64,000 bases of DNA. Source: Luteolibacter sp. LG18 (GTDB lineage: Bacteria > Verrucomicrobiota > Verrucomicrobiia > Verrucomicrobiales > Akkermansiaceae). The stretch covers positions 4,712,001-4,776,000 of the forward strand of contig NZ_AP024600.1 in NCBI RefSeq assembly GCF_036322585.1, written 5' to 3'. The notes beneath the pieces are model-generated. The model saw nothing but the letters and a program-made list of their open reading frames with translations, was not told where the DNA came from and did not search any database. The position numbers and the translations under genes were made by a program. Of the stretch, positions 16,179 to 63,562 are shown one piece after another (positions within the stretch are counted from its first letter, which is position 1; every line of letters starts with the position of its first letter).

Positions 16179-16217
16179 GAGAAACGAAAAGCGTGCGGGA
16201 TGAAAAACGGGATGAAA

Positions 16218-16931
16218 TCAGCGGTTGCCACCTTGGCTCGGAATGACCCGGGGGCGTGGAGGACGGACGTTGTTGTTATTGTTGTTTCCGCCGTCCCGTC
16301 CACCTCCGTGGTTGTTGTTGAAGCCCGCGGTGTTCGCACCACCGGCATTGCCCCCGTTGCCTCCACCGGCATTGGGCATCGGATTGCCAGCGGCCACCGG
16401 AGAGGCCTGGCCCGGCACTGGAACCGCGACAGGCATGTTGGGATTCCCCGGGTTGCCGGGGTTGCCCGGATTTCCGGGATTGCCCGGCATGCCGTTCTGG
16501 CCGGGCTGCCCCTTGGCGGGCGCCGCGGTCTTGATCACCAGCAGCTTCTCATCGAAGGCAACCACCCCGGTCTTGGAACCAGTGGAAAGCATAACGGTCA
16601 TGCTGCGTGGACCAGAATTGCCGGGCCGCACTTCCACCACCTTGTAGTCCGAAGGCTGGCCGGGGATGATCTTGATGCGCTCGTCCGGCTTCTTCTTGTT
16701 CTGAAGAACCACCATGTAGCCACCATCCACCGGCATCACCGCGCTCAGGGCGAGGTCGCCGAGGGGATTCTCTTCCGGGGGGCGAATCACTTCCGGCTTG
16801 GTCGTGAACGGGGATTGTTGCCACAGGCGGGAGTAGGTCGAATCAGGGACCTTCTTCACCACCTCGACGCCAAACGCGGCGGAGGAAGCGAAAATCGTCA
16901 GGATTGTCAGGAGAAATCGCGTCGTTTTCAT
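16218..16931 (-). CDS. Exported protein with collagen-like GNP repeats in the type II secretion operon
   Basis: A 237-residue exported protein with signal peptide MKTTRFLLTILTIFASSAAFG. Residues about 25-140 form a small folded domain (SAVMPVDGGYMVVLQNKKKPDERIKI broken into strands; KTGVVAFDEKLLVIKT). Then comes a collagen-like tract of GNPGNPGNPG type (about 148-165), and a Gly/Asn/Pro-rich tail with runs of N and NNNNNNVRPPRP. It sits between gspM and gspD, where GspC or PilP-like periplasmic linkers to the secretin occur in other systems. A GspC/PilP-like role is inference from place and topology only. Confidence 0.75.
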   Translation of the reverse strand: MKTTRFLLTILTIFASSAAFGVEVVKKVPDSTYSRLWQQSPFTTKPEVIRPPEENPLGDLALSAVMPVDGGYMVVLQNKKKPDERIKIIPGQPSDYKVVEVRPGNSGPRSMTVMLSTGSKTGVVAFDEKLLVIKTAAPAKGQPGQNGMPGNPGNPGNPGNPGNPNMPVAVPVPGQASPVAAGNPMPNAGGGNGGNAGGANTAGFNNNHGGGRDGGNNNNNNVRPPRPRVIPSQGGNR

Positions 16932-16935
16932 GACT

Positions 16936-17469
16936 TCAGGTGGTGGGGCTTTGCGGGACGAACCACTGCTCGATCGTCAACTTGGCGTCGATCTTGGTGT
17001 CGTCCTCGTGGTTCGGCTGGAGATGGATGAAGGTGACGGCCCGGAACTCGCTGGGCACCTGGAGACGACCGATCCACTTGTAGAGGGCGTCCTCGTTGCC
17101 GGTCACCGAGAATTCCACCTTCGCGCGGTGGTAATTGACCGGGGAAACATCGGTCGGCAGCAGCTTTTGCGTTTTGATCGTCAGGCCGCGGGAAGTCGCT
17201 TCCCGCTCGACAAGCTGCTGGAGCGCGGTCTGGGCGTCCTGATCTTCCTGGGGCTTCGGTTCGTGCTCGGCGATCCAGTCCATCTGGTCCGCGACCTGAT
17301 CCCGCTGGCTGAGGATCATTTTGGCCAGATCATACTCCTGCTGGGCTTTCAACTGCTCCCGCGCCACGTTCGTGCGGAGCTGGGAAAGCTTCATGAACAG
17401 GATCAAATTGAGCATGATGAATCCGCCGATGCCGAGCAACGTGAGCAGGCGTTTTTCATTGGAAGACAT
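16936..17469 (-). CDS. gspM: GspM/PilO-like inner-membrane assembly protein
   Basis: A 177-residue bitopic protein with a short cytoplasmic N-terminus (MSSNEKR), one transmembrane helix (about 9-28), a coiled-coil region (30-85) and a ferredoxin-like C-terminal domain (about 95-172). The last has the PilO/GspM pattern of KVEFSVTGNEDALYKWIGRLQ. It lies downstream of a GspL-like gene, as expected, and would pair with it in the inner-membrane platform. Named by topology and place; sequence identity to GspM is weak, as is usual in this family. Confidence 0.75.
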   Translation of the reverse strand: MSSNEKRLLTLLGIGGFIMLNLILFMKLSQLRTNVAREQLKAQQEYDLAKMILSQRDQVADQMDWIAEHEPKPQEDQDAQTALQQLVEREATSRGLTIKTQKLLPTDVSPVNYHRAKVEFSVTGNEDALYKWIGRLQVPSEFRAVTFIHLQPNHEDDTKIDAKLTIEQWFVPQSPTT

Positions 17470-17571
17470 GGAGTAATGTAGCGGAAAAGGGGGTGGAAAG
17501 GAATTCCGGGATCAGCCGGACGAGAGAAAAAAGCCGCCCGGGCGCGGAATTGTCGGTTGACGGAAAACAAA

Positions 17572-18828
17572 TCAGCGCCTTTGGGTCCCGGCTTGGGCCG
17601 TGCGGCCGGTGAACACGAAATCCCAACCCTTATTGGTTTGCGCCGGCTCTTGGTTTTCCCAAGTGAAAGCGGAAAGCTGGTCGCTCTTGTGAAGGGCCAG
17701 GTCGAATTGCTTGACGGGCCCCGGCTGCGGAGCTTGCCCCACCACCTTGATTTCATTGCCGTCGATGTCCGCGGACTTCAAGCGCACCCCGCCTGCGCCC
17801 CCGCCGGACGAAGGAATTGAACTCACCACCCGGTAGAGCAGCTCCACCGGGGATTTGCCGAGATCCACAACAGACTCGAGCTCATCCCACTTTGCAACGT
17901 GCTGCTGGTAAGCCATTCGCTGCGGAGCAACCTTCCCAGCCTCGGCTCGCAGTTGGGAAACCTTGCGATCCTTCATCCAGTAATCGTATCCAAACCAACC
18001 GAGGGTGCCCAAATACGCGATCCCGACGAGGGCCGCCGCGGCGATCATCTGGCGGCGACGCTGGGCGTGCTTGCGGGCCGCACGGACGTCATCCGGGAGC
18101 AGGTGGCTGCGCGGATCCGGGAGAACCGGCGCAGGTTTCGGGAAAATCTGGACCGGGATGCCGAAGGCGGTTTCCAGCGCCCCGACCGGCGGCTGAGCGG
18201 AGTCATAGACCACGACCCGCTCGGCGCGACAATCCAATCCCTGGAGGGACATCTGGATCAGGGCGAGACGCATTTCCCGGACCACCGCTCCATCCGGTGC
18301 CGGACCTTCGATACCGGTGGCCTGGCAATAGGCGAGCTTTCCACCCACCGAAACCGCGAACACCCAGCGACCGAACTCGCGCCAGAGCACGAGGGAATCC
18401 CCTTGGTACGGGACAGCGCGGGCGGAGAGGTCGAATTCCTTCGGCGTGCGGGCAGGCATTTCGCCGTCACCCGGCGTCCTAAGAACCACCGAGAGCAGGG
18501 TCGAGTTCTCGCCATCCTTCGCCACCACGAACTGGTCGGTGAGCTGGCCCGCCATCGGGTCGGGACGCAGGCCCTGGCGCTCCGCGTGCATCGCGGCGAG
18601 CTCCGGGAACAACGAGGCATCCTCGGTATTGACCTTCAGAGGCAGCGCCGTGAGGGCCCGGACCGGAAACAGCAGAATCACGTCGCCGGACGGCAAACCG
18701 GTGATCTCTCCCGCCCGGGCCGTGGGGGCCGTGGACAGCAAAGTAAACCCCGTGGCGGACGATCCCGACCAAATTTCCCACCCGGTCTCACCGGGAACCA
18801 GCATCAAATTGTCGGACGGTTTGCTCAC
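17572..18828 (-). CDS. gspL: GspL-like type II secretion inner-membrane platform protein
   Basis: A 418-residue protein with an actin-like N-terminal cytoplasmic domain (about 1-240), a single transmembrane helix (about 261-284, MIAAAALVGIAYLGTLGWFG) and a PilN-like periplasmic domain (GNEIKVVGQAPQPGPVKQFDLAL). That is the GspL/PilM-PilN layout. It recruits the GspE ATPase in known systems. The start ATG overlaps the gspK stop (TGA 18827-18825). The gap to gspM is about 100 bases, the largest within the operon apart from none being promoter-like that I can support. Confidence 0.78.
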   Translation of the reverse strand: MSKPSDNLMLVPGETGWEIWSGSSATGFTLLSTAPTARAGEITGLPSGDVILLFPVRALTALPLKVNTEDASLFPELAAMHAERQGLRPDPMAGQLTDQFVVAKDGENSTLLSVVLRTPGDGEMPARTPKEFDLSARAVPYQGDSLVLWREFGRWVFAVSVGGKLAYCQATGIEGPAPDGAVVREMRLALIQMSLQGLDCRAERVVVYDSAQPPVGALETAFGIPVQIFPKPAPVLPDPRSHLLPDDVRAARKHAQRRRQMIAAAALVGIAYLGTLGWFGYDYWMKDRKVSQLRAEAGKVAPQRMAYQQHVAKWDELESVVDLGKSPVELLYRVVSSIPSSGGGAGGVRLKSADIDGNEIKVVGQAPQPGPVKQFDLALHKSDQLSAFTWENQEPAQTNKGWDFVFTGRTAQAGTQRR

Positions 18829-19760
18829 GGAATCACTTCTTCGGTTCGTTCTAGGATGGCCGGACGGCCAGTGCGGTTGCGGAGAATCAGGGAAATCTTG
18901 CGGGTGGCCCCTTCGGCGTGGCCGACGCTTTCGATGCGCACGGTGGTGTCATTCGCCGCGAAACGCTGGGCGATGTCGGGACGACCGTTCGTGTCAACTC
19001 CTAGCAAGGAAAGCGCCTCGTTGACATTCTGGAAAGGAACATCGTCGTCGGTGTAACGGACCCCATCGGAACCCCGAACCTTTTCCACCACCTGATCGGC
19101 GGTTTCCACCGGCACCTCGGCGGCGGCGGCGATCAGCTCGGCGGAGGCTTCATTGACGTCCAGGGCCCCGGCGCTCCAGATGGTGAACCAGTTGCGCCAA
19201 TCCGGCTTCACCGCCTCCACCCGGTCCATGCCGCGCACCAGACGCATTTCGTCGAGGCTGTAAAACGGATGATTGAAAGGCTGATTGATACGCCCTTCCC
19301 TCTCATACCAATCCCGCTCCGCGCCATTCATAGCCACCTCGTCGTCGGAATCGATCCAGTCGCCCAGCGCATCGGTCACCTGCTGGGCCTCTTCCATTTC
19401 CAAGCCCCAGTCGGAGAACATCTTGCGCAGCAGCGGCTTGTCGTCACGCAGCAGGATCGCGTTGATATTGAAGCGTCCGCCCTCGGAAGCGATCTTGACG
19501 TCGTAACTGCCCCCCACTTCCTCATCGGTGTGATGGAGAAGCGGATCGCTCGGCTTCACGGCCGGATTGGAAGCGACCGCCACGCCCATTTCGGCGAGCT
19601 GCTTCGCCTCGAAGCCATGGATCTTGGCGGACGCCACCTTGGTGTCGAACGAAACCACCCGCAGCGTCGCCATGCAGGCGATGCCGAGAATGGCGACCAG
19701 CCAGATCACGGCCAGAAGGGCCATGCCGCGGCGGCGTTTGGAATGAATTCTGGAGATCAT
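18825..19760 (-). CDS. gspK: Type II secretion minor pseudopilin GspK
   Basis: A 311-residue pseudopilin starting at ATG 19760. The prepilin peptidase site is KRRRG followed by MALLAVIWLVAILGIACM; the +5 residue is not Glu, which is typical of GspK. The large C-terminal part has the SAM-like GspK domain, with DWIDSDDEVAMNGAERDWYE, the EMRLVRGMDRV motif and WSAGALDVNEASAELI. It caps the pseudopilus tip with GspI and GspJ. Start and stop overlap its neighbours by ATGA on both sides. A longer upstream reading to 19964 overlaps gspJ and is not used. Confidence 0.9.
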   Translation of the reverse strand: MISRIHSKRRRGMALLAVIWLVAILGIACMATLRVVSFDTKVASAKIHGFEAKQLAEMGVAVASNPAVKPSDPLLHHTDEEVGGSYDVKIASEGGRFNINAILLRDDKPLLRKMFSDWGLEMEEAQQVTDALGDWIDSDDEVAMNGAERDWYEREGRINQPFNHPFYSLDEMRLVRGMDRVEAVKPDWRNWFTIWSAGALDVNEASAELIAAAAEVPVETADQVVEKVRGSDGVRYTDDDVPFQNVNEALSLLGVDTNGRPDIAQRFAANDTTVRIESVGHAEGATRKISLILRNRTGRPAILERTEEVIP

Positions 19761-20467
19761 GGCGTCGGTTGCTGCCTCGGCTGCGACTGCCCGAGCTGGC
19801 GCATCAGCACCTCCGGATTCTGTTTCGGCGTCAGCCAGAAGATCTGGCGGATTTCCTGCCCCTGGGCACCGAAAGCCATCTTGAGCTCCAGCATCAGCGG
19901 GAGACGGCCTTGGATGTCCCAGTCGTATTGCCATTCCATGGTCCGGCCATCCATGACCTGCCATTCGAAATAGTTCACATCCTCCAGCAGCACGATCTCG
20001 GCGAACGGCTTGTTATCGATGCTCGAACTGGCCGGCTCATTCGCGGCCTGGGTCGAGCCCTCAAGGATTTCATTCTCGTAGTAGCGCAGGACGATGTTGA
20101 GATACCCGTCGCTGCGCCGCACCGTGGAAATCTGCACGGCCTTGGCAATGCGCTCGCCGCCGCCCCAGTTGAAGCTCAGCGGGACGTTCTGGAGCGTGAG
20201 ATCGGAGAGGATCTGCGTGCCCTCCTGATACTTGAGATCGAAGCGCGTGTTCCCCGGCAGCGAGGAGAACCGGCGGGAAAGAAGCTCGAAGAACGCCTGG
20301 TGGAGCATCTCCTCGTTCTGGGTCTTCACGACGGTGTTCCCGAGCGCCAGGGAGGCATGGGAGGTCGTGAACACCATCCCCATGAGCATGGCGAGCAGCA
20401 TGATGGCCAGCACCAGCTCCAGCATGGTGAAGCCCTTGCGCCTCGGTTTTGGAACGGAAATCTTCAC
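19757..20467 (-). CDS. gspJ: Type II secretion minor pseudopilin GspJ
   Basis: A 236-residue pseudopilin. The GTG at 20467 is chosen because it overlaps the gspI stop (GTGA) and gives a normal leader, VKISVPKPRRKG, before FTMLELVLAIMLLAMLMGM with Glu at +5. The body is long and beta-rich, with WGGGERIAKAVQISTV and EIVLLEDVNYFEWQVMDG typical of GspJ. Extending to 20536 would add residues that overlap gspI and lack a start reason. It forms the tip complex with GspI and GspK. Confidence 0.88.
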   Translation of the reverse strand: MKISVPKPRRKGFTMLELVLAIMLLAMLMGMVFTTSHASLALGNTVVKTQNEEMLHQAFFELLSRRFSSLPGNTRFDLKYQEGTQILSDLTLQNVPLSFNWGGGERIAKAVQISTVRRSDGYLNIVLRYYENEILEGSTQAANEPASSSIDNKPFAEIVLLEDVNYFEWQVMDGRTMEWQYDWDIQGRLPLMLELKMAFGAQGQEIRQIFWLTPKQNPEVLMRQLGQSQPRQQPTP

Positions 20468-20880
20468 GGTTGATACATGCGCGAGTAGCGCCAGACCCGG
20501 GCGCTTTGCTCCTGCTCCTGGTTGTTCTCGGTCCACCGGGCGATGACCGTGATGAGATACATTTCCTGCAGGGCCTGCCCGTCCTCGTTCTGGAGCTGGT
20601 CCTGCATGGCCTCCACCTTGGTGACCACCTCCGTGTCCGCTTCCGCCAGCACCGTGGTGGTGGTGCCCTCCTCCATGGTCGGAGCGGCGAGGGCCTCGTC
20701 GAGGGCGCTTTCCAAGATCCGGGTGATGCGCAGCTTGCTCTGGGCATACTGCGCGGTGGCGGACATCCGGCTGATGGCCACGACAAACGCCACCGCCGCC
20801 GTGCCGAAAATGGCCAAGGCGAGGACCACCTCAAGCATGAGGAAGCCTTTGCGGGCGCGTTTGTGGAGGCTGGAGATCAT
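20464..20880 (-). CDS. gspI: Type II secretion minor pseudopilin GspI
   Basis: A 138-residue pseudopilin with leader MISSLHKRARKG and then FLMLEVVLALAIFGTAAVAF (Glu at +5). It has the small size and the RITRILESALDEAL helix of GspI. The start overlaps the gspH stop (ATGA at 20880-20877) and the end overlaps gspJ. It initiates the pseudopilus tip in well-studied systems. Confidence 0.85.
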   Translation of the reverse strand: MISSLHKRARKGFLMLEVVLALAIFGTAAVAFVVAISRMSATAQYAQSKLRITRILESALDEALAAPTMEEGTTTTVLAEADTEVVTKVEAMQDQLQNEDGQALQEMYLITVIARWTENNQEQEQSARVWRYSRMYQP

Positions 20881-21491
20881 TTGAATTCGGTCGCGGAATC
20901 CCGGATCGAGGCAGTCAGGGGGTGGTATTCGTCTTCAATCCAGCCATCCTTGTAGGTCAGGCGGACGGAGATGGGTTCGCAGAGCCCCTCGGGATCGAAA
21001 CGCCAGACTTCCGGCCGGCGTTCATCCATCGGGACCCATTTGTCAGCGCCCCAGTGGCGGACCATCATCGAAAACTCCCCATCCAGGGCGATTTCGTCAT
21101 GGACCGGGGCCTGGGCCGCGGCGGAAGGCGAAACCTCTTCATCCGTGGGCGATTCCGCGGAATGGGAGGAACGCTGGGAACCGAGCGAGCGGGAGACATT
21201 CTGTTCCGTGCCGCTCATTTCGGCCAGCGGCATCAGGAGCACCTTTCCGGGCACGAACACGATGGCGTAGGGCTTCTGCTGCAGCAACGCGATCATCCGG
21301 GCACGCTTGGCCATGATCTCCACCTCACCGGAAACCCGGCGGAGCTCCCGCTCCGAGGTGTGATAGACCATCAAACCGACCGCCCCTCCGATCACGAGAG
21401 CCGCGATGGCCAACACCATGACGATTTCCATCAGGGTGAAGCCAGCGCGCGAAGCCCTGCGGCCCTTAGTCGTCCTGGCTGCTGAGGTCAT
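20877..21491 (-). CDS. gspH: Type II secretion pseudopilin GspH
   Basis: A 204-residue pseudopilin with leader ending RRASRAG and then FTLMEIVMVLAIAALVIGGA (Glu at +5). It is the length of GspH and has the expected KRARMIALLQQKPYAIVF region after the helix. The only sensible start is ATG 21491, which lies 26 bases inside the end of gspG in another frame. That overlap is longer than those of the other genes in this operon. A Ser-rich loop (SQRSSHSAESPTDEEVSPS) in mid-protein is a likely disordered insert. Confidence 0.83.
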   Translation of the reverse strand: MTSAARTTKGRRASRAGFTLMEIVMVLAIAALVIGGAVGLMVYHTSERELRRVSGEVEIMAKRARMIALLQQKPYAIVFVPGKVLLMPLAEMSGTEQNVSRSLGSQRSSHSAESPTDEEVSPSAAAQAPVHDEIALDGEFSMMVRHWGADKWVPMDERRPEVWRFDPEGLCEPISVRLTYKDGWIEDEYHPLTASIRDSATEFK

Positions 21492-21894
21492 CTTCCGTTC
21501 CTTCGATGCCGTCCGGGCCCTTGCTGATGATTTCGAACTCGGCCGGCTTCTTGCGGCCCGGGAACTTGTAACCATACTGATTCTTCCACGGGTCGGTCGG
21601 CACCGCGGTCATGGTCTGGGCCCACTTGCGGGCGCTGGCCGGACGGTGCACCAGGGCATCGAGGCCTTCCTGAGTCGTGGGATAGTTGCCGGCGTTGATC
21701 TTGTACATCTCCAGCGAGGAGCCGAGCGACTTCATGTCGGCGGTCGTCTGGGTGATTTTGGCCTGGTTGCCGATGCCCTTCATGGCGAAAATGGCCCCCC
21801 CGAGGATCATCGCGATGATCCCGAGAACGATGACCATTTCAAGGAGGGTGAAGCCTTTGCGGCGGATCTGGCGGTTGGGGCGGGTGGTTTTCAT
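21466..21894 (-). CDS. gspG: Type II secretion major pseudopilin GspG
   Basis: A 142-residue major pseudopilin: leader MKTTRPNRQIRRKG and FTLLEMVIVLGIIAMILGGA with Glu at +5. Its C-terminal half has the GspG signature: MYKINAGNYPTTQEGLDALV, DPWKNQYGYKFPG and the calcium-loop-like ISKGPDGIEGTEDDLSSQD. It is first in the operon; the promoter should lie in the 171 bases before 22066, divergent from the carboxynorspermidine dehydrogenase gene. gspE, gspF and gspC are not in the window. Confidence 0.95.
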   Translation of the reverse strand: MKTTRPNRQIRRKGFTLLEMVIVLGIIAMILGGAIFAMKGIGNQAKITQTTADMKSLGSSLEMYKINAGNYPTTQEGLDALVHRPASARKWAQTMTAVPTDPWKNQYGYKFPGRKKPAEFEIISKGPDGIEGTEDDLSSQDD

Positions 21895-22065
21895 TCTTTG
21901 AAAATGACTGGCTCTTGGCCGGGCGGCACAAGGCTTACAGGGATGAAAACGCCGGGCGATGGAAAAGTTGCCGGTAAAAGTTACATCCGGGGCAGGAAAG
22001 TTCCCGGGAAATCCTTGCCAGCCCGGCCGGATTTTCCCACCCCTGTGGCCCGCAAATCTCATCCC

Positions 22066-23289
22066 ATGAACAAGGTTCTCCTCATCGGCGCCGGGGGCGT
22101 CGGCAGCGTCGTCGCCCACAAATGCGCCATGGTTCCCTCCGTTTTCGGGGAAATCACCCTCGCCTCCCGCACCAAATCGAAGTGCGACGCCATCGCCGCC
22201 GAGGTCAAGAAGCGCACCGGCCGGGACATCGCCACCGCCCAGGTGGACGCCGATGATCCGAAGCAGACCGCCGAGCTGATCCGCAAGACCGGCGCCACCC
22301 TGGTGGTCAACGTCGCCCTGCCCTACCAGGACCTGACCATCATGGAAGCCTGCCTGGACGCCGGGGTGGACTACCTGGACACCGCCAACTACGAGCCGAA
22401 GGACGTCGCGAAATTCGAATACTCTTGGCAATGGGCGCTCCAGGACAAGTGGCTCTCCGCCGGTCGCTCCGCTCTGCTCGGCTCCGGTTTCGACCCGGGC
22501 GTGACCAACGTTTTCACCGCCTGGGCGCTGAAGCACCACTTCGACGAGATCCACACCCTCGACATCATCGATGTGAACGGCGGCAACCACGGCAAGGCCT
22601 TCGCCACCAACTTCAATCCGGAGATCAACATCCGCGAGGTGACCGCCGAGTGCCGCCACTGGGAGAACGGCCAGTTCGTCGAAACCCCGCCGATGTCGAA
22701 GCACCAGGCCTTCACCTGCCCGCAGGGCGTCGGCACCTATGAGATCTACCGCATGTACCACGAGGAACTGGAGTCCCTCGTGAAGCACATCCCCACGATC
22801 AAGCGCGCGCAGTTCTGGATGTCGTTCTCGCCGAACTACCTGAAGCACCTCGAAGTGCTCCAGAACGTCGGCATGACCCGCATCGACCCCGTCGTTTACC
22901 AAGGCGTGGAGATCATCCCGCTCCAGTTCCTCAAGGCGGTCCTGCCGGACCCGGGCGAACTCGGCCAGACCACCAAGGGCAAGACCTGCATCGGCAATGT
23001 CATCACCGGCGTGAAGGACGGCCAGCCGAAGGCGATCTACATCTACAACATCTGCGACCACGAGGCGTGCTTCGCCGAAGTCGGCTCCCAGGCGATCTCC
23101 TACACCACCGGCGTCCCGGCGATGATCGGCGCGAAGCAGATGCTGGAAGGCAACTGGCGCAAGCCGGGCGTCTGGAACATGGAGCAGTACGATCCGGACG
23201 CGTTCATGGCCGACCTGAACGAGCACGGCCTGCCGTGGCAGTTCATCGAGCTGACCCAGGAACAGGCGGCGGCGTTCCAGGTGGCATAA
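22066..23289 (+). CDS. Carboxynorspermidine/carboxyspermidine dehydrogenase (saccharopine-dehydrogenase family)
   Basis: A 407-residue NAD(P)H-dependent reductase. It joins aspartate semialdehyde to a diamine (putrescine or 1,3-diaminopropane) to form carboxyspermidine or carboxynorspermidine. The Rossmann motif is VLLIGAGGVGSVVAHKCA (4-21), followed by LASRTKSKCDAIA, DTANYEPKD, SGFDPGVTNVF and DVNGGNHGKAFATNF, all typical of the bacterial CANSDH branch of the saccharopine dehydrogenase family. The decarboxylase for its product is the next gene, after a terminator. With speA nearby this forms a spermidine route independent of S-adenosylmethionine. Divergent from the type II secretion operon. 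Confidence 0.93.
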   Translation: MNKVLLIGAGGVGSVVAHKCAMVPSVFGEITLASRTKSKCDAIAAEVKKRTGRDIATAQVDADDPKQTAELIRKTGATLVVNVALPYQDLTIMEACLDAGVDYLDTANYEPKDVAKFEYSWQWALQDKWLSAGRSALLGSGFDPGVTNVFTAWALKHHFDEIHTLDIIDVNGGNHGKAFATNFNPEINIREVTAECRHWENGQFVETPPMSKHQAFTCPQGVGTYEIYRMYHEELESLVKHIPTIKRAQFWMSFSPNYLKHLEVLQNVGMTRIDPVVYQGVEIIPLQFLKAVLPDPGELGQTTKGKTCIGNVITGVKDGQPKAIYIYNICDHEACFAEVGSQAISYTTGVPAMIGAKQMLEGNWRKPGVWNMEQYDPDAFMADLNEHGLPWQFIELTQEQAAAFQVA

Positions 23290-56543: not shown

Positions 56544-58562
56544 TCAATAGAACTCCTTGCGGCGCTCCTCGATCATCACCAGCCAGTTCATCATCGTCAC
56601 CGGCGGCAGGTTCGCAGGATCGGTGATGGGCTTGAGGTTCACGGTGATCTTGTCCGCGGTCAGCACGGCGCCGCTGCTCGCCTTCATGTCCAGCGGGCGG
56701 ATCGGGGTGTCCTTGTCATCCGCCGCGAGGCTGCCGACCTGACCGCCGAGCTCGATCTTCCATGGATCGACGTCGGTGCCGTAGCGACGCTCCGGGGCAT
56801 ACATCGAGGCGGCGGGAAAGTCCGTGGAGCCGCTCTTGGCGACGATGTTGAAGTCGTCCCCGATATAGAGACGCATGTTCGTCACGATGGAGAACCCCTT
56901 CGTGAAGGTGGTGAGATCGCCGCAGTTGGTGAGCACCACGCCGATGTCGTTGTCGAGACATGGGTAAGCGGGCTTCCGCACCTTCGTGCTCACGGTGTAA
57001 TCGGCGTTCACCACGATCGAATTGTTCACCGCCAGGCTATCGCCACCGAGCTTGGTGACGACGTAAGCGTTCATGAGCTGGGGCTTGATCTCCACGCAGG
57101 GCCGCGAGCCGGCCACGGTGGTGAAGGCGAAGGGAATGGTGAGGTCCGCCGCGAGCTCCGCCGCGGTGAAGGTCTTCACCACGTCGAGCCCGCTCTTCTT
57201 GTAGGTGAAGCGGAGGTTGGTGGGCGCCTGGTTGCCACCGGAGCCGGTGACACCGGTGGTGCCGAGCACCTCGGTGACGTCCAGCTTCATGGCGCACTGG
57301 AGCGCGCCGACGGAGTACTGGTTCCACGTGGTTTTCGAGATCGTGTTGGCCTCGGTGGCCAGCGCGAAGCGGTCGAAGAACTCGGTACCGCGGTTGATCG
57401 GCACGAACACGGCGCGACCGCTCTCGGACGGGAGCGAAACGGGGTAGAACTCGCCGGTGGTGCTGTTGTCCACTTCATACTGCTCGCGCAAGCCGGGGGT
57501 GAACGGGCTGTTTCCGCCGAACGACTTGCCACCGATCACCGAGTCCGAGGAAAGGGTCATCGCCCGGCGGCTGGCCAGCGCATCGAGGGTGGTGGAGCCC
57601 TCCACCTGCGCCTTGCCGGCGTAAACGCGCCCCAGGATGGACACGTTTTGCCAAGCTTCCCCGGAAGCATACTTGCCGATCGCGGTGAAGGCGTTGGCCG
57701 AGATCGAAAGCTGGGACGGGATCTCGTAGATCGAGACCACGAAGTCGCGCTCCTGGTCGATGCGGGTGCCGAAATCGTTCTGATAAAGCGTGAGCGAGAA
57801 GCCCCACCAGTTCCGCTTCGCCACGAACCAGTCACCCGGCTTGGCGTAGCCGAAGTTGATGCGCGGGTACTTGAGCTTCACGAACTGGTTGCTGGCCGCG
57901 GTGATGGAGACGTCCGCGTAGCCGTTGGCATAGGTGCCGTAGTATTTCTTCGAGGAGATGATCGGATAGAGCATGTCCCCCATCTGGGTGCTGATGTCCG
58001 AGGACGTGCCGGTGCCGGTGTCATCGGTGTTCAGCGGGGCCGGGAAACCGGTGCCGAGGCTGTGGTTCATGCCGGAGGCGGCGTAGCGGGTGATGCTCGA
58101 GGACATCCCGCTGATGGAGTAATTGTCGTCCGCCTGGATCGGGTCGAACATCGCGCCGATGTTCGTGAGCGTGGAGTCGCCGTTGTTCCCCTTGTAGGTG
58201 GTGGTGAGGTTCAGGTTCGTCGCCACGGTGGTGGCGATGGAATTGCGAGCGTTCGCCTGATCGAGCGCGTCGTTGAAAATCGTGCCCCACTGCAAGGGGG
58301 TCGAAGTGGCCGTGCTGGCCTCGTTGCCGCTCTGCATGCAGCGGATCGCACGGTTCGGCACGATGGCGACCACCGAGCGCAGGATGGCGTCCTCCTTGCT
58401 CTGGAAGTCGGTGCGGACCTGGATGTCCTTCTGGATGTCGAGCGCGCGCCCCGAGTTGCGGTAGGCGGCGGTGAGGAGCAGCGTGAGCAGCAGCCCGAAG
58501 GACAACACCACCACGTAGGAGATGTAACCGGCCGGCCGCCGGCGGATGACGGTCGTTTTCAT
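56544..58562 (-). CDS. Large prepilin-cassette protein with N-terminal hydrophobic helix (unrecognised)
   Basis: A 672-residue protein. A basic leader (MKTTVIRRRPAG) precedes a hydrophobic helix (YISYVVVLSFGLLLTLLLTAAY), like a PilX/TadE-type or atypical prepilin with no Glu at +5. A helix with DIQKDIQVRTDFQSKEDAILRSVVAI follows, and the rest is a large Gly/Thr/Asn-rich beta domain with DIGVVLTNCGDLTTFTKGF and RRYGTDVDPWKIELGGQ. No family is recognised; I compared it mentally with the Verru_Chthon cassette A and cannot confirm it. Its start overlaps the upstream prepilin gene (ATGA). Probably a large cell-surface or pseudopilus tip protein. Confidence 0.72.
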   Translation of the reverse strand: MKTTVIRRRPAGYISYVVVLSFGLLLTLLLTAAYRNSGRALDIQKDIQVRTDFQSKEDAILRSVVAIVPNRAIRCMQSGNEASTATSTPLQWGTIFNDALDQANARNSIATTVATNLNLTTTYKGNNGDSTLTNIGAMFDPIQADDNYSISGMSSSITRYAASGMNHSLGTGFPAPLNTDDTGTGTSSDISTQMGDMLYPIISSKKYYGTYANGYADVSITAASNQFVKLKYPRINFGYAKPGDWFVAKRNWWGFSLTLYQNDFGTRIDQERDFVVSIYEIPSQLSISANAFTAIGKYASGEAWQNVSILGRVYAGKAQVEGSTTLDALASRRAMTLSSDSVIGGKSFGGNSPFTPGLREQYEVDNSTTGEFYPVSLPSESGRAVFVPINRGTEFFDRFALATEANTISKTTWNQYSVGALQCAMKLDVTEVLGTTGVTGSGGNQAPTNLRFTYKKSGLDVVKTFTAAELAADLTIPFAFTTVAGSRPCVEIKPQLMNAYVVTKLGGDSLAVNNSIVVNADYTVSTKVRKPAYPCLDNDIGVVLTNCGDLTTFTKGFSIVTNMRLYIGDDFNIVAKSGSTDFPAASMYAPERRYGTDVDPWKIELGGQVGSLAADDKDTPIRPLDMKASSGAVLTADKITVNLKPITDPANLPPVTMMNWLVMIEERRKEFY

Positions 58563-59089
58563 TGCTGCATGGCTCCGGAATAGGTGAGCACCTCATCGGC
58601 AGGCCCGGTGATCCTCGTCCGGAGGATGCCGTTTTCGACGGAGAATTTCACGTCCTTGGGCCGCTTCGTGAGCGCCCATTCCGGCGTGCCGAGGATGCCG
58701 TTGGCCGGCACCACGTAGTAGTAAAGCGCGTTGCCGCTGCCGAGGTTCTGGAACGCCAGGATGCCGGCGCGGGCCGTGCCATCGGGTTGCTGGTAATTGA
58801 GCACCAGCACCGAGGCATTGGTGAGCACGGAGTTGGTGCCCGCCTTGGCGTCGGTGAGATTGTTGTGGAGGCGGTAGCGCTCGGCCTGGCCGATGATCTT
58901 GTTCATGTAGGCGCTGAGCACCGGGGCCTCCTCCACGAGGAAGCTCTGCGCGTTGTAGATCCGGAGGAAGGCGAACTGCTGGTTGGCCAGCGACAGCACC
59001 ATCGCGCCGACCGCCAGGCCGATCATCATCGCCAGCGACAACTCCATGAGCGTGTAGCCCCTTTTCCGGTCTGGACGCGGTGTCTTCAT
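58559..59089 (-). CDS. Prepilin-type cassette protein 2
   Basis: A 176-residue type IV prepilin-like protein: leader MKTPRPDRKRG, then YTLMELSLAMMIGLAVGAMVL with Glu at +5, the standard prepilin peptidase site. Downstream a helix SLANQQFAFLRIYNAQSFLVEEAPVLSAYMNKI in part and a beta C-terminal domain. Coupled on both sides by ATGA overlaps with its neighbours. It is not one of the GspG-K set in this window. Confidence 0.83.
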   Translation of the reverse strand: MKTPRPDRKRGYTLMELSLAMMIGLAVGAMVLSLANQQFAFLRIYNAQSFLVEEAPVLSAYMNKIIGQAERYRLHNNLTDAKAGTNSVLTNASVLVLNYQQPDGTARAGILAFQNLGSGNALYYYVVPANGILGTPEWALTKRPKDVKFSVENGILRTRITGPADEVLTYSGAMQQ

Positions 59090-59589
59090 TGGGCGCGGAC
59101 CACGGTGCGGGATTTCACATAGGTGTGGCCGCCGATGTTGTAGGTGAGAACGCTCTGGAGCTTCCAGACCTTCATCAAGGCCGGGTTGGTGGCCGTGGTG
59201 CCGCCTCCACCATCCGTGGAGAAGTTGTTACTATCCGGAACACGCGTGCGGTAGACCGTGCCGGTAACCGACTTGCCACCCGGAGTTTTGCCGATCTCGA
59301 CGGTGGACGAGGAGAACTGCGGCTGGGCGGGCCAGGGCGAGCTCACCGAGGTGAGCGTCTCGAAGGGCACGCGCTGGGCGTAGGCCTTCTCGTAGGTCAT
59401 GTAGGCGTCGGAAATCGTCTGCTGCATCGTCCACTGCCGCGGGGTCAGCACATTGAGGCCGAGCTTCAGCAACAGCAGGCCGAGGACGCCGAGCGTTGAA
59501 ATCGCCATCGTCGCGTCAATCAACGCCAATCCGCGCCTTCCCCGCTTGCGCCGGGCGGCCGGAATGGAGACACTGCGCGGGTGTTCCAC
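59086..59589 (-). CDS. Prepilin-type cassette protein 1 (atypical leader)
   Basis: A 167-residue protein from GTG 59589 with leader ending RRKRGRRG and helix LALIDATMAISTLGVLGLLLLKL, with Asp where prepilins usually have Glu at +5. A polar helix with WTMQQTISDAYMTYEKAYAQRV and a beta domain follow. The GTG start overlaps the GTG start of the opposite-strand gene at 59581 by nine bases. The frame is open to 60024 but there it runs antisense to that gene. Coupled to the next gene by ATGA. Confidence 0.75.
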   Translation of the reverse strand: MEHPRSVSIPAARRKRGRRGLALIDATMAISTLGVLGLLLLKLGLNVLTPRQWTMQQTISDAYMTYEKAYAQRVPFETLTSVSSPWPAQPQFSSSTVEIGKTPGGKSVTGTVYRTRVPDSNNFSTDGGGGTTATNPALMKVWKLQSVLTYNIGGHTYVKSRTVVRAQ

Positions 59590-60192
59590 CGCGTTCTCAC
59601 CCTGTTCGCCACCGTCTGGCTGCTTGCCACGGGAACCGTCCGGGCACAGGCCATCCTCGAGCCCCCCTACGGCTTGAAATGGGGAGACTCTCCGGAGAAA
59701 CTGATTTCCTGGGCTTCCCGACATTCCCTGGACGTTACCATTTCGGTGCCTGGAGATCAACCGGCATTGCGGGTGGTCAAGATCCAGGCGCGAAAGGGCT
59801 TCCTGCCCGGCACCAGCGACGCCGCGGTGGAGGGACGCTTCTTCGGCGGCCGGATGTTCGAGCTGACGGTTCATTATATCGACCCGGAGGCCTCGGCGGA
59901 TCTGATGGAAACGCGGTTCCAGCAATTGAAACAGAAACTGTCGTCGGAGCTCGGCACGCTCGTCGCCGACCAGCAGCAGCGGTCGACGGCGGATCAGTTC
60001 ACGACTCGGACCCAGGCGTATCATCGGGAGCCGGTGAAGGGATTGTTCCTGATGCTGGCATTCACCGAGATCGAGGATCTACTGAGGAAGACGAAGGATG
60101 CCCGCTACTCGGTGATCTATCGGAACGACAATCTCAGGCAGGAGCTGGAGAAACTGATGCGGGCACCGGCCGCCCCGCAGGATGGCCGGTGA
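59581..60192 (+). CDS. Secreted protein of unknown function inside the prepilin cassette
   Basis: A 203-residue exported protein from GTG 59581: signal peptide MFHRVLTLFATVWLLATGTVRA, then PPYGLKWGDSPEKLISWASRHSL, FGGRMFELTVHYIDPEASADLMETRFQQLKQ in part, ending with a charged helix. It stands on the strand opposite to the six cassette genes, dividing them into two groups of three. Its start overlaps that of the prepilin gene. The family was not recognised. Confidence 0.75.
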   Translation: MFHRVLTLFATVWLLATGTVRAQAILEPPYGLKWGDSPEKLISWASRHSLDVTISVPGDQPALRVVKIQARKGFLPGTSDAAVEGRFFGGRMFELTVHYIDPEASADLMETRFQQLKQKLSSELGTLVADQQQRSTADQFTTRTQAYHREPVKGLFLMLAFTEIEDLLRKTKDARYSVIYRNDNLRQELEKLMRAPAAPQDGR

Positions 60193-60199
60193 GGCGGAA

Positions 60200-61225
60200 T
60201 CACTCGATGGTGTTGACGTTGCCATTGACCTGGATCGTGCGGTCCAGGTTGAAGGTGACATAGGCGAGACGCTCGACGCCGAAGGGCGTGGAGGTCACGA
60301 GCTCCAAGGTCCACTTGCCGTCCGCGTCGAAGATCTTGTCCCAGTTCGTGAGCGTGAGCACCCGACTCTGGGGGATGGTTTCATTCACCACCAGCGAGGA
60401 GCCCGGCACCACGGTCCCAACCTTCCCCAGCACCGCCGCGCCCTCGTAAACTTGGGCGTAGGTGGTGGAGCTGGGATAGAGGTCGTTCAGGGTGAGCGTG
60501 ACGGTGGGCAGCGCGAAGCGGATGAGCTGGTTGCTGGTGATGCCGGCGATCGAGCCATCCGCCACCGGCCAGATCTGGATGAACTGGGATGCGAGCTGGG
60601 CGGCGGGCGCCTGGTAGTCGTCCAGCGAATAGATCGAATAACGCTCCTCGCCGCGCACCTTGGTCTGGGGTGTGGCGGTGAGCGACGTCATCGAGTACGT
60701 CAACGTCTGCGAACCGTTCACGGCGATCGAGGAGGTGCTGATCAAGGTCGCCTGGGTACGGTCGATCCCGACGCCTGTTCCCGAGGCGCCGTAGGACTGT
60801 TTGTGGCGCAGGAAGTTCACGCTCTTGGAAGCCACCGGATCACTCGCGCCGGACAGCAGGCCGGAAACCGTGATGTCGACATAGAACGGACGGTCGGCAC
60901 GGGTGCGGGGAATCGTGGTGTAGGGATCCTCCGAGCGGATCGACACCGTGGCCATCGGCACGTAGGAGCCCACATACTTGCTATCGAGCAGGTAGCTGGT
61001 CAGCGGCGAGGATTTCACCGTCCACAGTTCGAACCGTGCGCCACCGGGATTGATCGCCAGATCGGATTGCTGGCTACCGGTCGATGAAAGGTTCGCCGAT
61101 TGCTTGGTGGTGCCGGACGGGAGCTGGTACTGGATGATGTAATTGGTGAAAGAGGAACCGCTTTGCGCGGCGGCCCCCATGATCCCCATGGCGGAAAGAA
61201 AGAGAATGGAGCGGAAGGTTTTCAT
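60200..61225 (-). CDS. Secreted beta-rich protein of the prepilin cassette (unrecognised)
   Basis: A 341-residue exported protein: signal peptide MKTFRSILFLSAMGIMGAAAQ, then Ser/Thr-rich beta repeats (FYVDITVSGLLSGASDPVASKSVNF in part; TLISTSSIAVNGSQTLTYSMTSL in part). It ends with FGVERLAYVTFNLDRTIQVNG. The start overlaps the preceding stop by TGATG. It is co-oriented with the two other secreted genes upstream. No known family. Confidence 0.75.
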   Translation of the reverse strand: MKTFRSILFLSAMGIMGAAAQSGSSFTNYIIQYQLPSGTTKQSANLSSTGSQQSDLAINPGGARFELWTVKSSPLTSYLLDSKYVGSYVPMATVSIRSEDPYTTIPRTRADRPFYVDITVSGLLSGASDPVASKSVNFLRHKQSYGASGTGVGIDRTQATLISTSSIAVNGSQTLTYSMTSLTATPQTKVRGEERYSIYSLDDYQAPAAQLASQFIQIWPVADGSIAGITSNQLIRFALPTVTLTLNDLYPSSTTYAQVYEGAAVLGKVGTVVPGSSLVVNETIPQSRVLTLTNWDKIFDADGKWTLELVTSTPFGVERLAYVTFNLDRTIQVNGNVNTIE

Positions 61226-61779
61226 CAGGGTTTCCCGGTGACGGGGGTGGCGGCGGTCGGAGCCGGGGCGGTTTTCAATGGCAACACCGAGATCGGATCG
61301 CCATGAAAGGTGGCAACCACGATGTAGGGACTTTTCGCGAGGCTCTTCTGGACGTCATCCGGCAGGGCTTCGCGCCCTTCGGCCTGCGGGCGGCTCACCT
61401 CCTGGGTGATAATCCAACCGCGGTTGTCGGACAGGAATTCGGACCAGGATTGGAAGTTCGAACCCTCTTTGAAACCGAGCCGGGAGGCATAGGCCGCGGG
61501 TGTATGGAGAATGGCGCGCTTCGGCACGAGAGTAGCCCGGCCAGCGAAACAAAAGATGTCCGAGCGGGTCAGAATATCGCCGGGACGGTTCGCCACGGAA
61601 GGATCCACAGCCAACTCGACGGGTTTCATTTCCACCGTGGGGGGCTGGGTCCGCTGCTGCTGCGCACGGCGCGTCAACTCCTCCGCGGTGACCGCGTCAC
61701 GCATGGTGGGCTTTGCCGCGGTTTCTGCGGCACATGGCAGAACAAGAAGAGCGGCGCTGAACGACAGGAAGGTTTTCAT
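61225..61779 (-). CDS. Secreted protein of the prepilin cassette (unrecognised)
   Basis: A 184-residue exported protein from ATG 61779 (signal MKTFLSFSAALLVLPCAAE). Features: a helix TAEELTRRAQQQRTQPP, PGDILTRSDIFCFAGRATLVPKRAIL, and FLSDNRGWIITQEVSR, with a Pro/Ala-rich end. The ATG overlaps the upstream stop (ATGA at 61779-61776) and its stop overlaps the downstream start. No known family. Confidence 0.75.
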   Translation of the reverse strand: MKTFLSFSAALLVLPCAAETAAKPTMRDAVTAEELTRRAQQQRTQPPTVEMKPVELAVDPSVANRPGDILTRSDIFCFAGRATLVPKRAILHTPAAYASRLGFKEGSNFQSWSEFLSDNRGWIITQEVSRPQAEGREALPDDVQKSLAKSPYIVVATFHGDPISVLPLKTAPAPTAATPVTGKP

Positions 61780-62474
61780 GACTTGCGGAAGGTCACCAGC
61801 AGGCAAAGGTCCTGGATGTCGAAACCCGAGTTCGAGGTGTCGGTATGGGTGAGCTCGAAGAGATAAATCACGTCCATCGGCCCGATCTTGATCTTGCCGG
61901 TGCTGTCAAGATAGGGCTTCAGGAAGCTCTCGATCGTCGGCTGGTTGTAGTCCGGCAGGGTGCTGGGCGGCGTGTCGCCGTTGACCAGCGCCACCACCTG
62001 TTTCGAGCCGGTTTGGGTGGTGTTGTAGAAGGTCGACCAAGCGTTGTTGTAGTAGTAGCGGCCGCCGAAGTTGAGCGGCTTGTTCTTCGCCGCCAGGCGC
62101 GTGTAGACGATGTTGGCGGGTTTCACGTTCGTCTGCTTGTCGTAGAAGATACGGGTCCAGGAACCGGTGTCGTACTTCACCTGGGCCTCCACCGGGAAGT
62201 AGGCGGTGTTCGTGGCCACGGAGGCTCCGAGCACGCGGACATCGATGTAGATGTCCTGCTTCGGCGTGAGGGTCCCCGGCGGCGTGATGGTCACCACGTC
62301 CTGCACAATGCTTGGGTAGGTGATGTTCCAGGTCAGCGTGGGATGGGTGCCGGACTGGACGACGGTGGGATAGGCGGTCAACGAGCCGACCGGGATGGCC
62401 GGATCGTTGGTTTGGGCCGCCGCGTGGGCGGCGAGGCAAAGGACGGCGAGAGCACTGGGGACAAGGGCTTTCAT
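61776..62474 (-). CDS. Secreted beta-sandwich-like protein of the prepilin cassette (unrecognised)
   Basis: A 232-residue exported protein from ATG 62474 (signal MKALVPSALAVLCLAAHAAA). The start of the mature part, SLTAYPTVVQSGTHPTLTWNITYP, has the sequence of an Ig-like strand pair; later KPLNFGGRYYYNNAWSTFYNT is a candidate beta-rich carbohydrate or peptide surface. First of the co-transcribed group. The 284 bases upstream (62475-62758) hold no gene I can support. Confidence 0.75.
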   Translation of the reverse strand: MKALVPSALAVLCLAAHAAAQTNDPAIPVGSLTAYPTVVQSGTHPTLTWNITYPSIVQDVVTITPPGTLTPKQDIYIDVRVLGASVATNTAYFPVEAQVKYDTGSWTRIFYDKQTNVKPANIVYTRLAAKNKPLNFGGRYYYNNAWSTFYNTTQTGSKQVVALVNGDTPPSTLPDYNQPTIESFLKPYLDSTGKIKIGPMDVIYLFELTHTDTSNSGFDIQDLCLLVTFRKS

Positions 62475-62758: not shown

Positions 62759-63562
62759 TCATCGGACAGGTGCGAGGGGGGCGTCCGACCACGATCTCCA
62801 AGGGCCGCGAGGCACATCGCGGTCATGGGTGAAGCGCCATTCGACCTGCTCGCCGCTGCGGAGTCCGAGGAAATCGCGGACGGCGGGGCTCAGGTCGATG
62901 CCTGCGCTGGAATTCCGGTTAGGACGGGGATCTTCCTTGCCGAAAACGTACTGCCAGTGGTCGGTCACGAAGGGCCCCACATCCTCCCACTGGGCGTAGC
63001 AGACGCGGCCCTTGTGGTGGATGGCGACCCAGCGGTCCTTGCACACGGAAATCCCGTCGCCACGATAATCTTCCCAGAACCATGGGATAACCTCGGGGGC
63101 CTCGGGACGATGCCTGCCATCGCGACCGATGTCATTGTAAGGCAGGGCGATGTAAAAGGGATTGAGCGCGGGGGTGAAGTCCGCCGGGAAGTAACCCTTT
63201 CGGCGCTCGGGATGATCGTAACCGCCGAAGTTCTCCTGCCAGTTCTGGTCCCAGGCGCTGGCGCGGTTCGGGGTCGGATTGTTCTGCGACGGCTGCTCGC
63301 CCACCCAGAAGACGGTCGAGACCACATTGCGGTGCCAGGAATCCGGACCGCGGAAACGCTCGCGCGGATTCTCGATGACGACGCTCGCCGCGGGCGGCAC
63401 GCCGTAGGGATCGCTGAGCGTCGGGATCACGTCCCGGCGGTTGTCCAACAGGCGCTCATGGGCCGCCTCTAACCGGTCTTCCAAGGCCGCATTCGCCAGA
63501 GCCGGAGCAAGAAGCGCCGCGGCAAACAGGGAGAAACGAACTGGAAGCTCTGGGTTACCCAT
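62759..63562 (-). CDS. Exported protein with double-psi beta-barrel-like end
   Basis: A 267-residue exported protein with signal peptide (residues about 1-25, FSLFAAALLAPALANA). The C-terminal half has GRVCYAQWEDVGPFVTDHW and AGIDLSPAVRDFLGL, recalling the GPF and IDLS motifs of RlpA/expansin-type double-psi beta barrels. The middle is rich in W, H and aromatic residues (WDQNWQENFGGYDHPERRKGYF in part). It may act on or bind cell-wall glycan. The fold is inferred from motifs. Confidence 0.65.
   Translation of the reverse strand: MGNPELPVRFSLFAAALLAPALANAALEDRLEAAHERLLDNRRDVIPTLSDPYGVPPAASVVIENPRERFRGPDSWHRNVVSTVFWVGEQPSQNNPTPNRASAWDQNWQENFGGYDHPERRKGYFPADFTPALNPFYIALPYNDIGRDGRHRPEAPEVIPWFWEDYRGDGISVCKDRWVAIHHKGRVCYAQWEDVGPFVTDHWQYVFGKEDPRPNRNSSAGIDLSPAVRDFLGLRSGEQVEWRFTHDRDVPRGPWRSWSDAPLAPVR

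What the first reader, a model, noticed from the sequence alone, without database searches (positions are those of the whole stretch)
56544..62474. Six-gene cassette of prepilin-like and secreted proteins, split by an opposite-strand gene
Minus strand: three secreted proteins (62474-60200), then two prepilin-like proteins and a 672-residue hydrophobic-leader protein (59589-56544). Almost every junction is a 4-base overlap. None of the proteins was recognised and none duplicates the GspG-K set. It resembles in spirit the Verru_Chthon cassettes and may be a separate export or surface-fibre system using the shared prepilin peptidase.
Basis: partly seen in the sequence, partly recalled or inferred. 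Interest (0 to 1): 0.8.

Follow-up and report, generated by a model that had tools for sequence, protein, structure and literature searches.

The report
Tip module of unknown bacterial pilus
Six genes of unknown function in an aquatic Verrucomicrobia-type bacterium are conserved together across two families, and occur almost only in genomes that also carry an undescribed, motor-driven pilus machine, so they most likely build the working tip of that pilus.

Summary
Six minus-strand genes (62474-56544) encode three Sec-type secreted proteins (g1-g3) and three prepilin-like proteins (g4-g6), split by an opposite-strand gene. None matches Pfam or NCBIfam beyond a sub-threshold prepilin motif in g5, and none fits the Verru_Chthon models.

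The unit is real. g6 is in 70 and g3 in 71 of 145 family genomes, 68 shared. In relatives the genes run contiguously without the opposite-strand gene.

The new result lies outside the window. In 14 relatives' loci a divergent PilT-family ATPase ("PilTx") sits 1.8-3.1 kb downstream of g6; in a second family it directly abuts g6. It leads a cluster with pilins, PilB-like, PilC-like, secretin, GspM-like and ABC-transporter genes. Every PilTx-positive family genome (65/65) has g3, and 63 have g6. In a 376-genome phylum sample the g3 and PilTx sets are the same 17 genomes. The host carries this machine 1.07 Mb away.

Best reading: the cassette is the GspI/J/K-like tip (giant tip pilin g6 plus partners g1-g3) of an undescribed type IV pilus-like machine, distinct from Verru_Chthon and from the known Akkermansia MUL2 pilus. 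The tip role of g1-g3, the ligand and retraction are inferred.

The parts
61776..62474 (-). g1: secreted protein, 232 aa, signal peptide; N-terminal PVGxL...P.LTW region and conserved C-terminal EL.HT...G(F/Y)D.QD...LVTF
   Evidence: family alignment A3, 29 sequences; no Pfam/NCBIfam hit of note
61225..61779 (-). g2: secreted protein, 184 aa; conserved LVPKxAILxxP...W.DF...NRGW core; 4-base overlap with g1
   Evidence: alignment A4, 30 sequences
60200..61225 (-). g3: secreted all-beta protein, 341 aa, predicted Ig-like/beta-sandwich domains; 1-base overlap with g2
   Evidence: alignment A2; AlphaFold2 pLDDT 88.7; Foldseek matches to Ig-like folds including adhesins, TM <= 0.31
59581..60192 (+). 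gP: opposite-strand secreted protein, 203 aa (PPFGLxWGD...); syntenic in Akkermansiaceae, absent from the second family and from the G014 copies at L061, L063, L064 and L065; probably not a core part
59086..59589 (-). g4: prepilin-like, GspI-type position, leader G|LALID (Glu at +5 in 35 of 37 sequences, Asp here)
   Evidence: (A6)
58559..59089 (-). g5: prepilin-like, GspJ-type position, leader G|YTLMELS; 4-base overlap with g4
   Evidence: A5; N_methyl 19.3 bits; TIGR02532 hit by 33 of 39 sequences
56544..58562 (-). g6: giant prepilin-like protein, 672 aa, GspK/PilX-type leader without Glu5; long N-terminal helix 13-75 then a beta-rich body; conserved last strand NWLVxIEE
   Evidence: A1; AlphaFold2 pLDDT 85, pTM 0.86; Foldseek best hit ComZ giant pilin, E 1.2e-5 but TM 0.12
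62759..63562 (-). nUp: conserved upstream neighbour, secreted 267 aa; same strand, about 285 bases before g1; part of the conserved neighbourhood in Akkermansiaceae only

Best explanation
The six genes are the tip module of a dedicated, undescribed type IV pilus-like machine of Verrucomicrobiales. g4, g5 and g6 play the parts of GspI, GspJ and GspK (PilV, PilW, PilX): after cleavage by the genome's single prepilin peptidase they assemble in the inner membrane as a priming complex, and the 672-residue g6 caps the filament with its large beta-rich body. g1, g2 and g3 are exported by Sec as a set and most likely bind g6 as the replaceable, PilY1-like adhesive head. The filament is built from the tandem pilins of the linked cluster by its PilB-like and PilC-like proteins, leaves through its secretin, and may be pulled back by PilTx. 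In this genome the machine lies at C1:3.683-3.7005 Mb and the cassette at 4.769-4.775 Mb. Shown: the gene set, prepilin leaders, co-conservation, physical linkage to the machine in relatives, near-perfect co-distribution. Inferred: that g1-g3 sit at the tip, that the role is attachment, and that PilTx retracts the fibre.
For: Co-conservation: g6 in 70/145, g3 in 71/145, 68 shared. Contiguous g2-g3-g4-g5-g6 in a second family, and contiguous g1-g6 without gP in the relatives L061, L063 and L064. PilTx, a divergent PilT-family ATPase (TIGR01420 E 5e-74), directly follows g6 in that second family and lies 1.8-3.1 kb downstream of g6 in 14 further loci. It is followed there by pilins, a GspL/PilM-position protein and a PilO/GspM-position protein. 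The host's orthologous cluster holds T2SSF (PilC-like), T2SSE (PilB-like), secretin, four tandem pilins, a GspM-like protein and an ABC ATPase. Co-distribution: 65/65 PilTx-positive family genomes have g3, 63/65 have g6; in a 376-genome phylum sample g3 and PilTx occur in the same 17 genomes. Leader chemistry fits I/J/K: Glu5 in g4/g5, none in g6, like M. xanthus PilX (PMC7541494). A second unit g1-g2-g3-g6 without g4-g5 (L088, L105) couples the secreted triad directly to g6. Foldseek's only hit below E 0.001 for g6 is the tip pilin ComZ.
Against: No sequence match of g4 or g6 to GspI/PilV or GspK/PilX families; the ComZ hit has TM 0.12, so the fold link is weak. No experiment places any of these proteins on a filament. 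In the host the cassette is 1.07 Mb from the machine, and in several finished genomes the gap is hundreds of kb or more. The host also has a T2SS and other type IV pilus genes that could use these pilins. Orphan g1-g2-g3 triads occur away from any g4-g6, so the triad may have a role of its own. Eight genomes with g6 or g3 lack a PilTx match, not all of them clearly incomplete. Co-distribution is partly shared ancestry: the cassette genomes also nest largely inside the GspK-positive genomes.
Confidence: 0.72

Rival explanations
1. A secretion system rather than a pilus: g4-g6 cap a short pseudopilus and g1-g3 are the substrates pushed out through the linked secretin (T2SS-like export of a three-protein set).
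For: g1-g3 have Sec-type signal peptides and are encoded as a set; extra triads elsewhere in the genome look like extra clients of one apparatus; the linked secretin scores best to GspD and one linked protein to GspM, both below cut-off.
Against: A PilT-family ATPase is tightly linked and co-distributed; T2SS do not normally carry a retraction-type ATPase (general knowledge). g6 duplicates with the triad without g4-g5, which suits a tip partner better than a passing substrate.
Confidence: 0.2
2. A DNA-uptake (competence) pilus: g6 is a ComZ-like DNA-binding tip pilin and the PilT-like motor pulls DNA in.
For: ComZ is the only Foldseek hit below E 0.001; ComZ is a giant tip pilin that binds DNA (PMC6561018).
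Against: TM 0.12 only; ComZ's body is a beta-solenoid, which was not shown for g6; nothing in the cassette explains three secreted proteins; no competence genes were seen beside it.
Confidence: 0.12
3. An alternative tip for the window's own T2SS (13.6-23.2 kb) or another resident type IV pilus; the PilTx link reflects old gene order only.
For: Cassette genomes are mostly GspK-positive, 66 of 70; single prepilin peptidase; the cassette lies in the same 64-kb window as the T2SS.
Against: Many GspK-positive genomes lack g6 (45 of 111), whereas all PilTx-positive ones have g3.
Confidence: 0.1
4. A divergent Verru_Chthon cassette.
For: Same phylum; same idea of small prepilins plus one giant prepilin.
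Against: No TIGR02596/98/99/600 match reaches cut-off, and the few weak hits (best E 0.0069) are far below it; no profile similarity of g6 to the genome's TIGR02600-like proteins; different gene content.
Confidence: 0.03

Closest known systems
Type IVa pilus minor-pilin/PilY1 tip complex (M. xanthus FimU-PilV-PilW-PilX-PilY1 clusters; PMC7541494)
   Same: Small gene cluster of minor pilins, one (PilX) lacking Glu5, encoded with a secreted partner; several clusters serve one pilus machine
   Different: Three pilins instead of four; g6 is a giant; no PilY1 or PilX domain found; three unrelated secreted proteins take the place of PilY1
GspI-GspJ-GspK tip of the T2SS pseudopilus
   Same: Order I-J-K, Glu5 in the first two, none in the last, largest protein last
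   Different: No GspK domain in g6; linked to a PilT-family ATPase; the window's true GspG-K set is separate
Thermus ComZ/PilA2 competence pilus tip (PMC6561018)
   Same: Giant GspK-like tip pilin; best Foldseek hit of g6
   Different: TM 0.12; no sequence similarity found; no secreted triad
Verru_Chthon cassettes (TIGR02596/02598/02599/02600)
   Same: Verrucomicrobial prepilin cassettes with one giant member
   Different: No model match, no profile similarity, different partners
MUL2 / Amuc_1098-1102 pilus of Akkermansiaceae (PMC13174399)
   Same: Type IV-like pilus locus of the same family proposed for attachment to glycans
   Different: PilTx-cluster secretin scores 52 bits against a 750-bit Amuc_1098 cut-off; PilTx, g3 and g6 not found in the sampled genus g3, which I take to be Akkermansia
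M. xanthus pil cluster with the PilGHI ABC transporter (PMC6060248)
   Same: ABC-transporter genes inside a type IV pilus cluster
   Different: Homology of the two trios was not tested; only the ATPase was recognised here

Membership tests
Verru_Chthon cassette | Members match TIGR02596/02598/02599/02600 above curated cut-off | tested here: not met
   weak hits only for TIGR02596 (7 of 39 g5 sequences, best E 0.0069) and TIGR02599 (3 in all); none for TIGR02600
Verru_Chthon cassette | Giant member homologous to TIGR02600-like proteins | tested here: not met
   hhalign probability 3.4%
Type IV pilin-like (class III leader) proteins | G|x cleavage site with hydrophobic N-terminal helix, Glu5 except in K/X-type | tested here: met
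   g5 N_methyl 19.3 bits, just below the 21.2 cut-off
GspI/J/K or PilV/W/X minor pilins | Recognisable GspI, GspJ, GspK or PilX domains | tested here: not met
   similarity limited to the N-terminal helix; the direct g6-GspK comparison was not completed
GspK/ComZ-type tip pilin fold | Pilin fold with large inserted domain | tested here: inconclusive
   long N-terminal helix predicted; ComZ E 1.2e-5 but TM 0.12
PilY1 tip adhesin | vWFA and C-terminal PilY1 domains | tested here: not met
   no such Pfam match in any cassette protein at E <= 10
Type IV pilus-like machine (linked PilTx cluster) | PilT-family ATPase, PilB-like ATPase, PilC-like protein, secretin and pilins in one cluster | tested here: met
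   Pfam T2SSE, T2SSF and Secretin pass cut-off, but the NCBIfam PilT-, PilB-, PilC- and secretin-type scores are below the curated cut-offs
MUL2 / Amuc_1098 pilus | Amuc_1098-family secretin | tested here: not met
   52 bits against cut-off 750
Type IV pilus | Visible, retractable surface filament | not testable with these tools
   needs microscopy and mutants

The most novel reading that the evidence does not exclude
A distinct Verrucomicrobiales class of type IV filament with its own PilT-like motor and ABC-transporter genes, crowned by a tip with no known parts: a giant pilin with a body of about 600 residues plus an exchangeable three-protein head, so that one machine can be fitted with alternative triads encoded elsewhere in the genome.
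Probability: 0.4. Interest if true: 0.75.

Novelty: new variant of a known kind. Interest (0 to 1): 0.62.

Why it matters
Aquatic Verrucomicrobia are important polysaccharide degraders that live on particles, and how they hold on is largely unknown. Published work on the family points to one pilus, MUL2. This work indicates a second, undescribed pilus machine in nearly half of the sampled Akkermansiaceae and in a second family that appears to be Verrucomicrobiaceae, and supplies its probable tip proteins, motor and pilins. That gives named genes for a direct knockout and pull-down test, and a candidate for a tip that works without PilY1.

Tried and rejected
Verru_Chthon membership: rejected. 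Direct sequence match to GspI/J: only the N-terminal helix; a g6-GspK comparison failed on a frame error and was not repeated. Homology between g1 and g3: none. PDB sequence searches with g6, g3 and nUp profiles: no hit; with g1, g2 and gP: none significant. Genome-collection scan with g5 alone found nothing. Opposite-strand gene as a system part: rejected, absent from the second family and from L061, L063, L064 and L065. T2SS as the partner machine: considered; GspK co-occurs with the cassette, but PilTx is the tighter partner. A paper search for the Verru_Chthon model name found none.
Full report
What is there. Six ORFs lie on the minus strand at 62474-56544: g1 (232 aa), g2 (184), g3 (341), then after a 610-base gap g4 (167), g5 (176), g6 (672). 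Three of the four within-cassette junctions are 4-base ATGA overlaps; g2/g3 overlaps by one base. The gap holds a plus-strand gene, gP (59581-60192). g1-g3 begin with signal peptides (read by eye from the sequence; no predictor was available). g4, g5 and g6 begin with prepilin-type leaders. None of the six passes a Pfam or NCBIfam cut-off; g5 falls just short of the prepilin motif models.

Is it one system? The host is a 5.80 Mb genome in one contig. g6 is found in 70 of 145 genomes of the family and g3 in 71; 68 are shared. At least one mismatch is an assembly artefact: in G120 the contig ends just after g4, cutting g5. Gene order in 40 fetched loci shows the triad g1-g2-g3 and the trio g4-g5-g6 usually close together, sometimes in swapped order or with the triad inverted, with tandem trios in L054, L060 and L079. 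In three loci of one genome (L061, L063, L064) all six run without gP. In four genomes of a second family of the order (L192-L195) the order is secreted protein-g2-g3-g4-g5-g6, again without gP (order read gene by gene in L192 and L195). The gene before g2 there is not detectably related to g1. gP is therefore a lineage-specific insertion. The named records hit (Luteolibacter, Haloferula, Roseibacillus, Prosthecobacter MAGs and others) suggest that the two families are Akkermansiaceae and Verrucomicrobiaceae.

Which machine? In the second-family loci, g6 is followed immediately by a divergent PilT-family ATPase, here called PilTx (TIGR01420 E 5e-74, 250 bits, below the 319-bit cut-off). In 14 further loci from the genome collection PilTx lies 1.8-3.1 kb downstream of g6. 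In loci read through, the space holds an ABC-type ATPase, a permease-like and a third membrane-type protein, and PilTx is followed by one or more pilins, a ~600-aa protein in the GspL/PilM position and a PilO/GspM-position protein. The host's PilTx is at C1:3.697 Mb. Its cluster holds an ABC ATPase, four tandem pilins, a GspM-like protein, a secretin, a PilB-like ATPase and a PilC-like protein. The NCBIfam scores of the ATPases, the PilC-like protein and the secretin are all below the curated cut-offs, and the secretin is not of the Amuc_1098 family. In 15 of 22 genomes checked where both lie on one contig they are 11-52 kb apart; in the other seven, the host included, the gap is 0.3-2.7 Mb.

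Co-distribution. PilTx is found in 65 of 145 family genomes. All 65 have g3 and 63 have g6; of the two exceptions, G120 is cut at a contig end and G020 is 84% complete. Eight genomes have g6 or g3 without a PilTx match. In the phylum sample of 376 genomes, g3 and PilTx are found in the same 17 genomes, 13 of one family and 4 of another; g6 is in these 17 and one more genome of a slightly larger sample. Shared ancestry contributes to these counts, but two families, and presence and absence within single genera, make coincidence unlikely.

How it probably works. g4-g5-g6 correspond by order, leader chemistry and size to GspI-J-K / PilV-W-X, which form a tip and priming complex; M. xanthus encodes such sets with PilY1 in three clusters serving one machine, and its PilX also lacks Glu5 (PMC7541494). 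The g6 model (pLDDT 85) has one long N-terminal helix and a large beta-rich body. Its only Foldseek hit with E below 0.001 is ComZ, the giant tip pilin of Thermus (E 1.2e-5, TM 0.12; PMC6561018): suggestive, not proof. g3 is predicted all-beta and matches Ig-like folds that include bacterial adhesins, with low TM. In L088 and L105 a second unit g1-g2-g3-g6 lacks g4-g5, which ties the triad to g6, and the host carries further triads at C1:4.052 Mb and 0.137 Mb. This fits an exchangeable head on a giant tip pilin. Attachment is the likeliest use, because the family lives on particles and is proposed to use another pilus for glycan attachment (PMC13174399), but this is inference.

Known systems. 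It is not a Verru_Chthon cassette, the linked machine is not MUL2, and the cassette has no PilY1 domain. It looks like a minor-pilin tip complex and belongs with a type IV pilus-like machine, but its proteins are members of no described family in the libraries used. The machine itself also appears undescribed in the held literature, with the limit that only open-access papers were searched.

Limits. No complex prediction was available, nor any library of predicted cellular structures. Gene calls in relatives used a simple ORF caller and start sites are approximate. The names PilO-, GspL- and PilM-like in the linked cluster rest on position, except the GspM match (28 bits, below cut-off).

Noticed in passing
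G000:C1 (loci L179-L191), e.g. L180:4364-7792: The genome has 14 TIGR02600-like giant prepilins (1095-1275 aa); in the loci read, several sit next to one secreted protein of about 230-280 aa, and no B/C/D-type prepilins were noticed beside them.
   Followed up: partly
window 62759-63562, minus strand: nUp, the upstream neighbour, is very strongly conserved (over 50 invariant columns in 21 sequences) yet matches nothing in Pfam, NCBIfam or PDB; the AQWEDVGPF...AGIDxSPAVRDYLG stretch looks RlpA/double-psi-barrel-like by eye only.
   Followed up: partly
L197:8437-10786 and L198:8554-11011 (G000 C1 4.05 Mb and 0.137 Mb): Two further g1-g2-g3-type secreted triads in the host with no prepilin trio beside them (the second has a divergent first gene).
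   Followed up: partly
L237:11619-13563 (G000 C1): Four tandem, similar pilin genes beside PilTx; copy number varies between relatives.
   Followed up: no
window 13578-23226, minus strand: A T2SS-like locus with secretin, GspM-, GspL-, GspK-, GspJ-, GspI-, GspH- and GspG-like genes; the H-type pseudopilin has a sub-threshold Expansin_C match.
   Followed up: partly
L088:10906-15467 and L105:6525-11187: Second unit g1b-g2b-g3b-g6b without g4/g5 directly upstream of the PilTx cluster.
   Followed up: yes
G000:C1:4944109-4944771: Only one prepilin peptidase (Peptidase_A24) gene was found in the genome, so all its pilin systems probably share it.
   Followed up: yes
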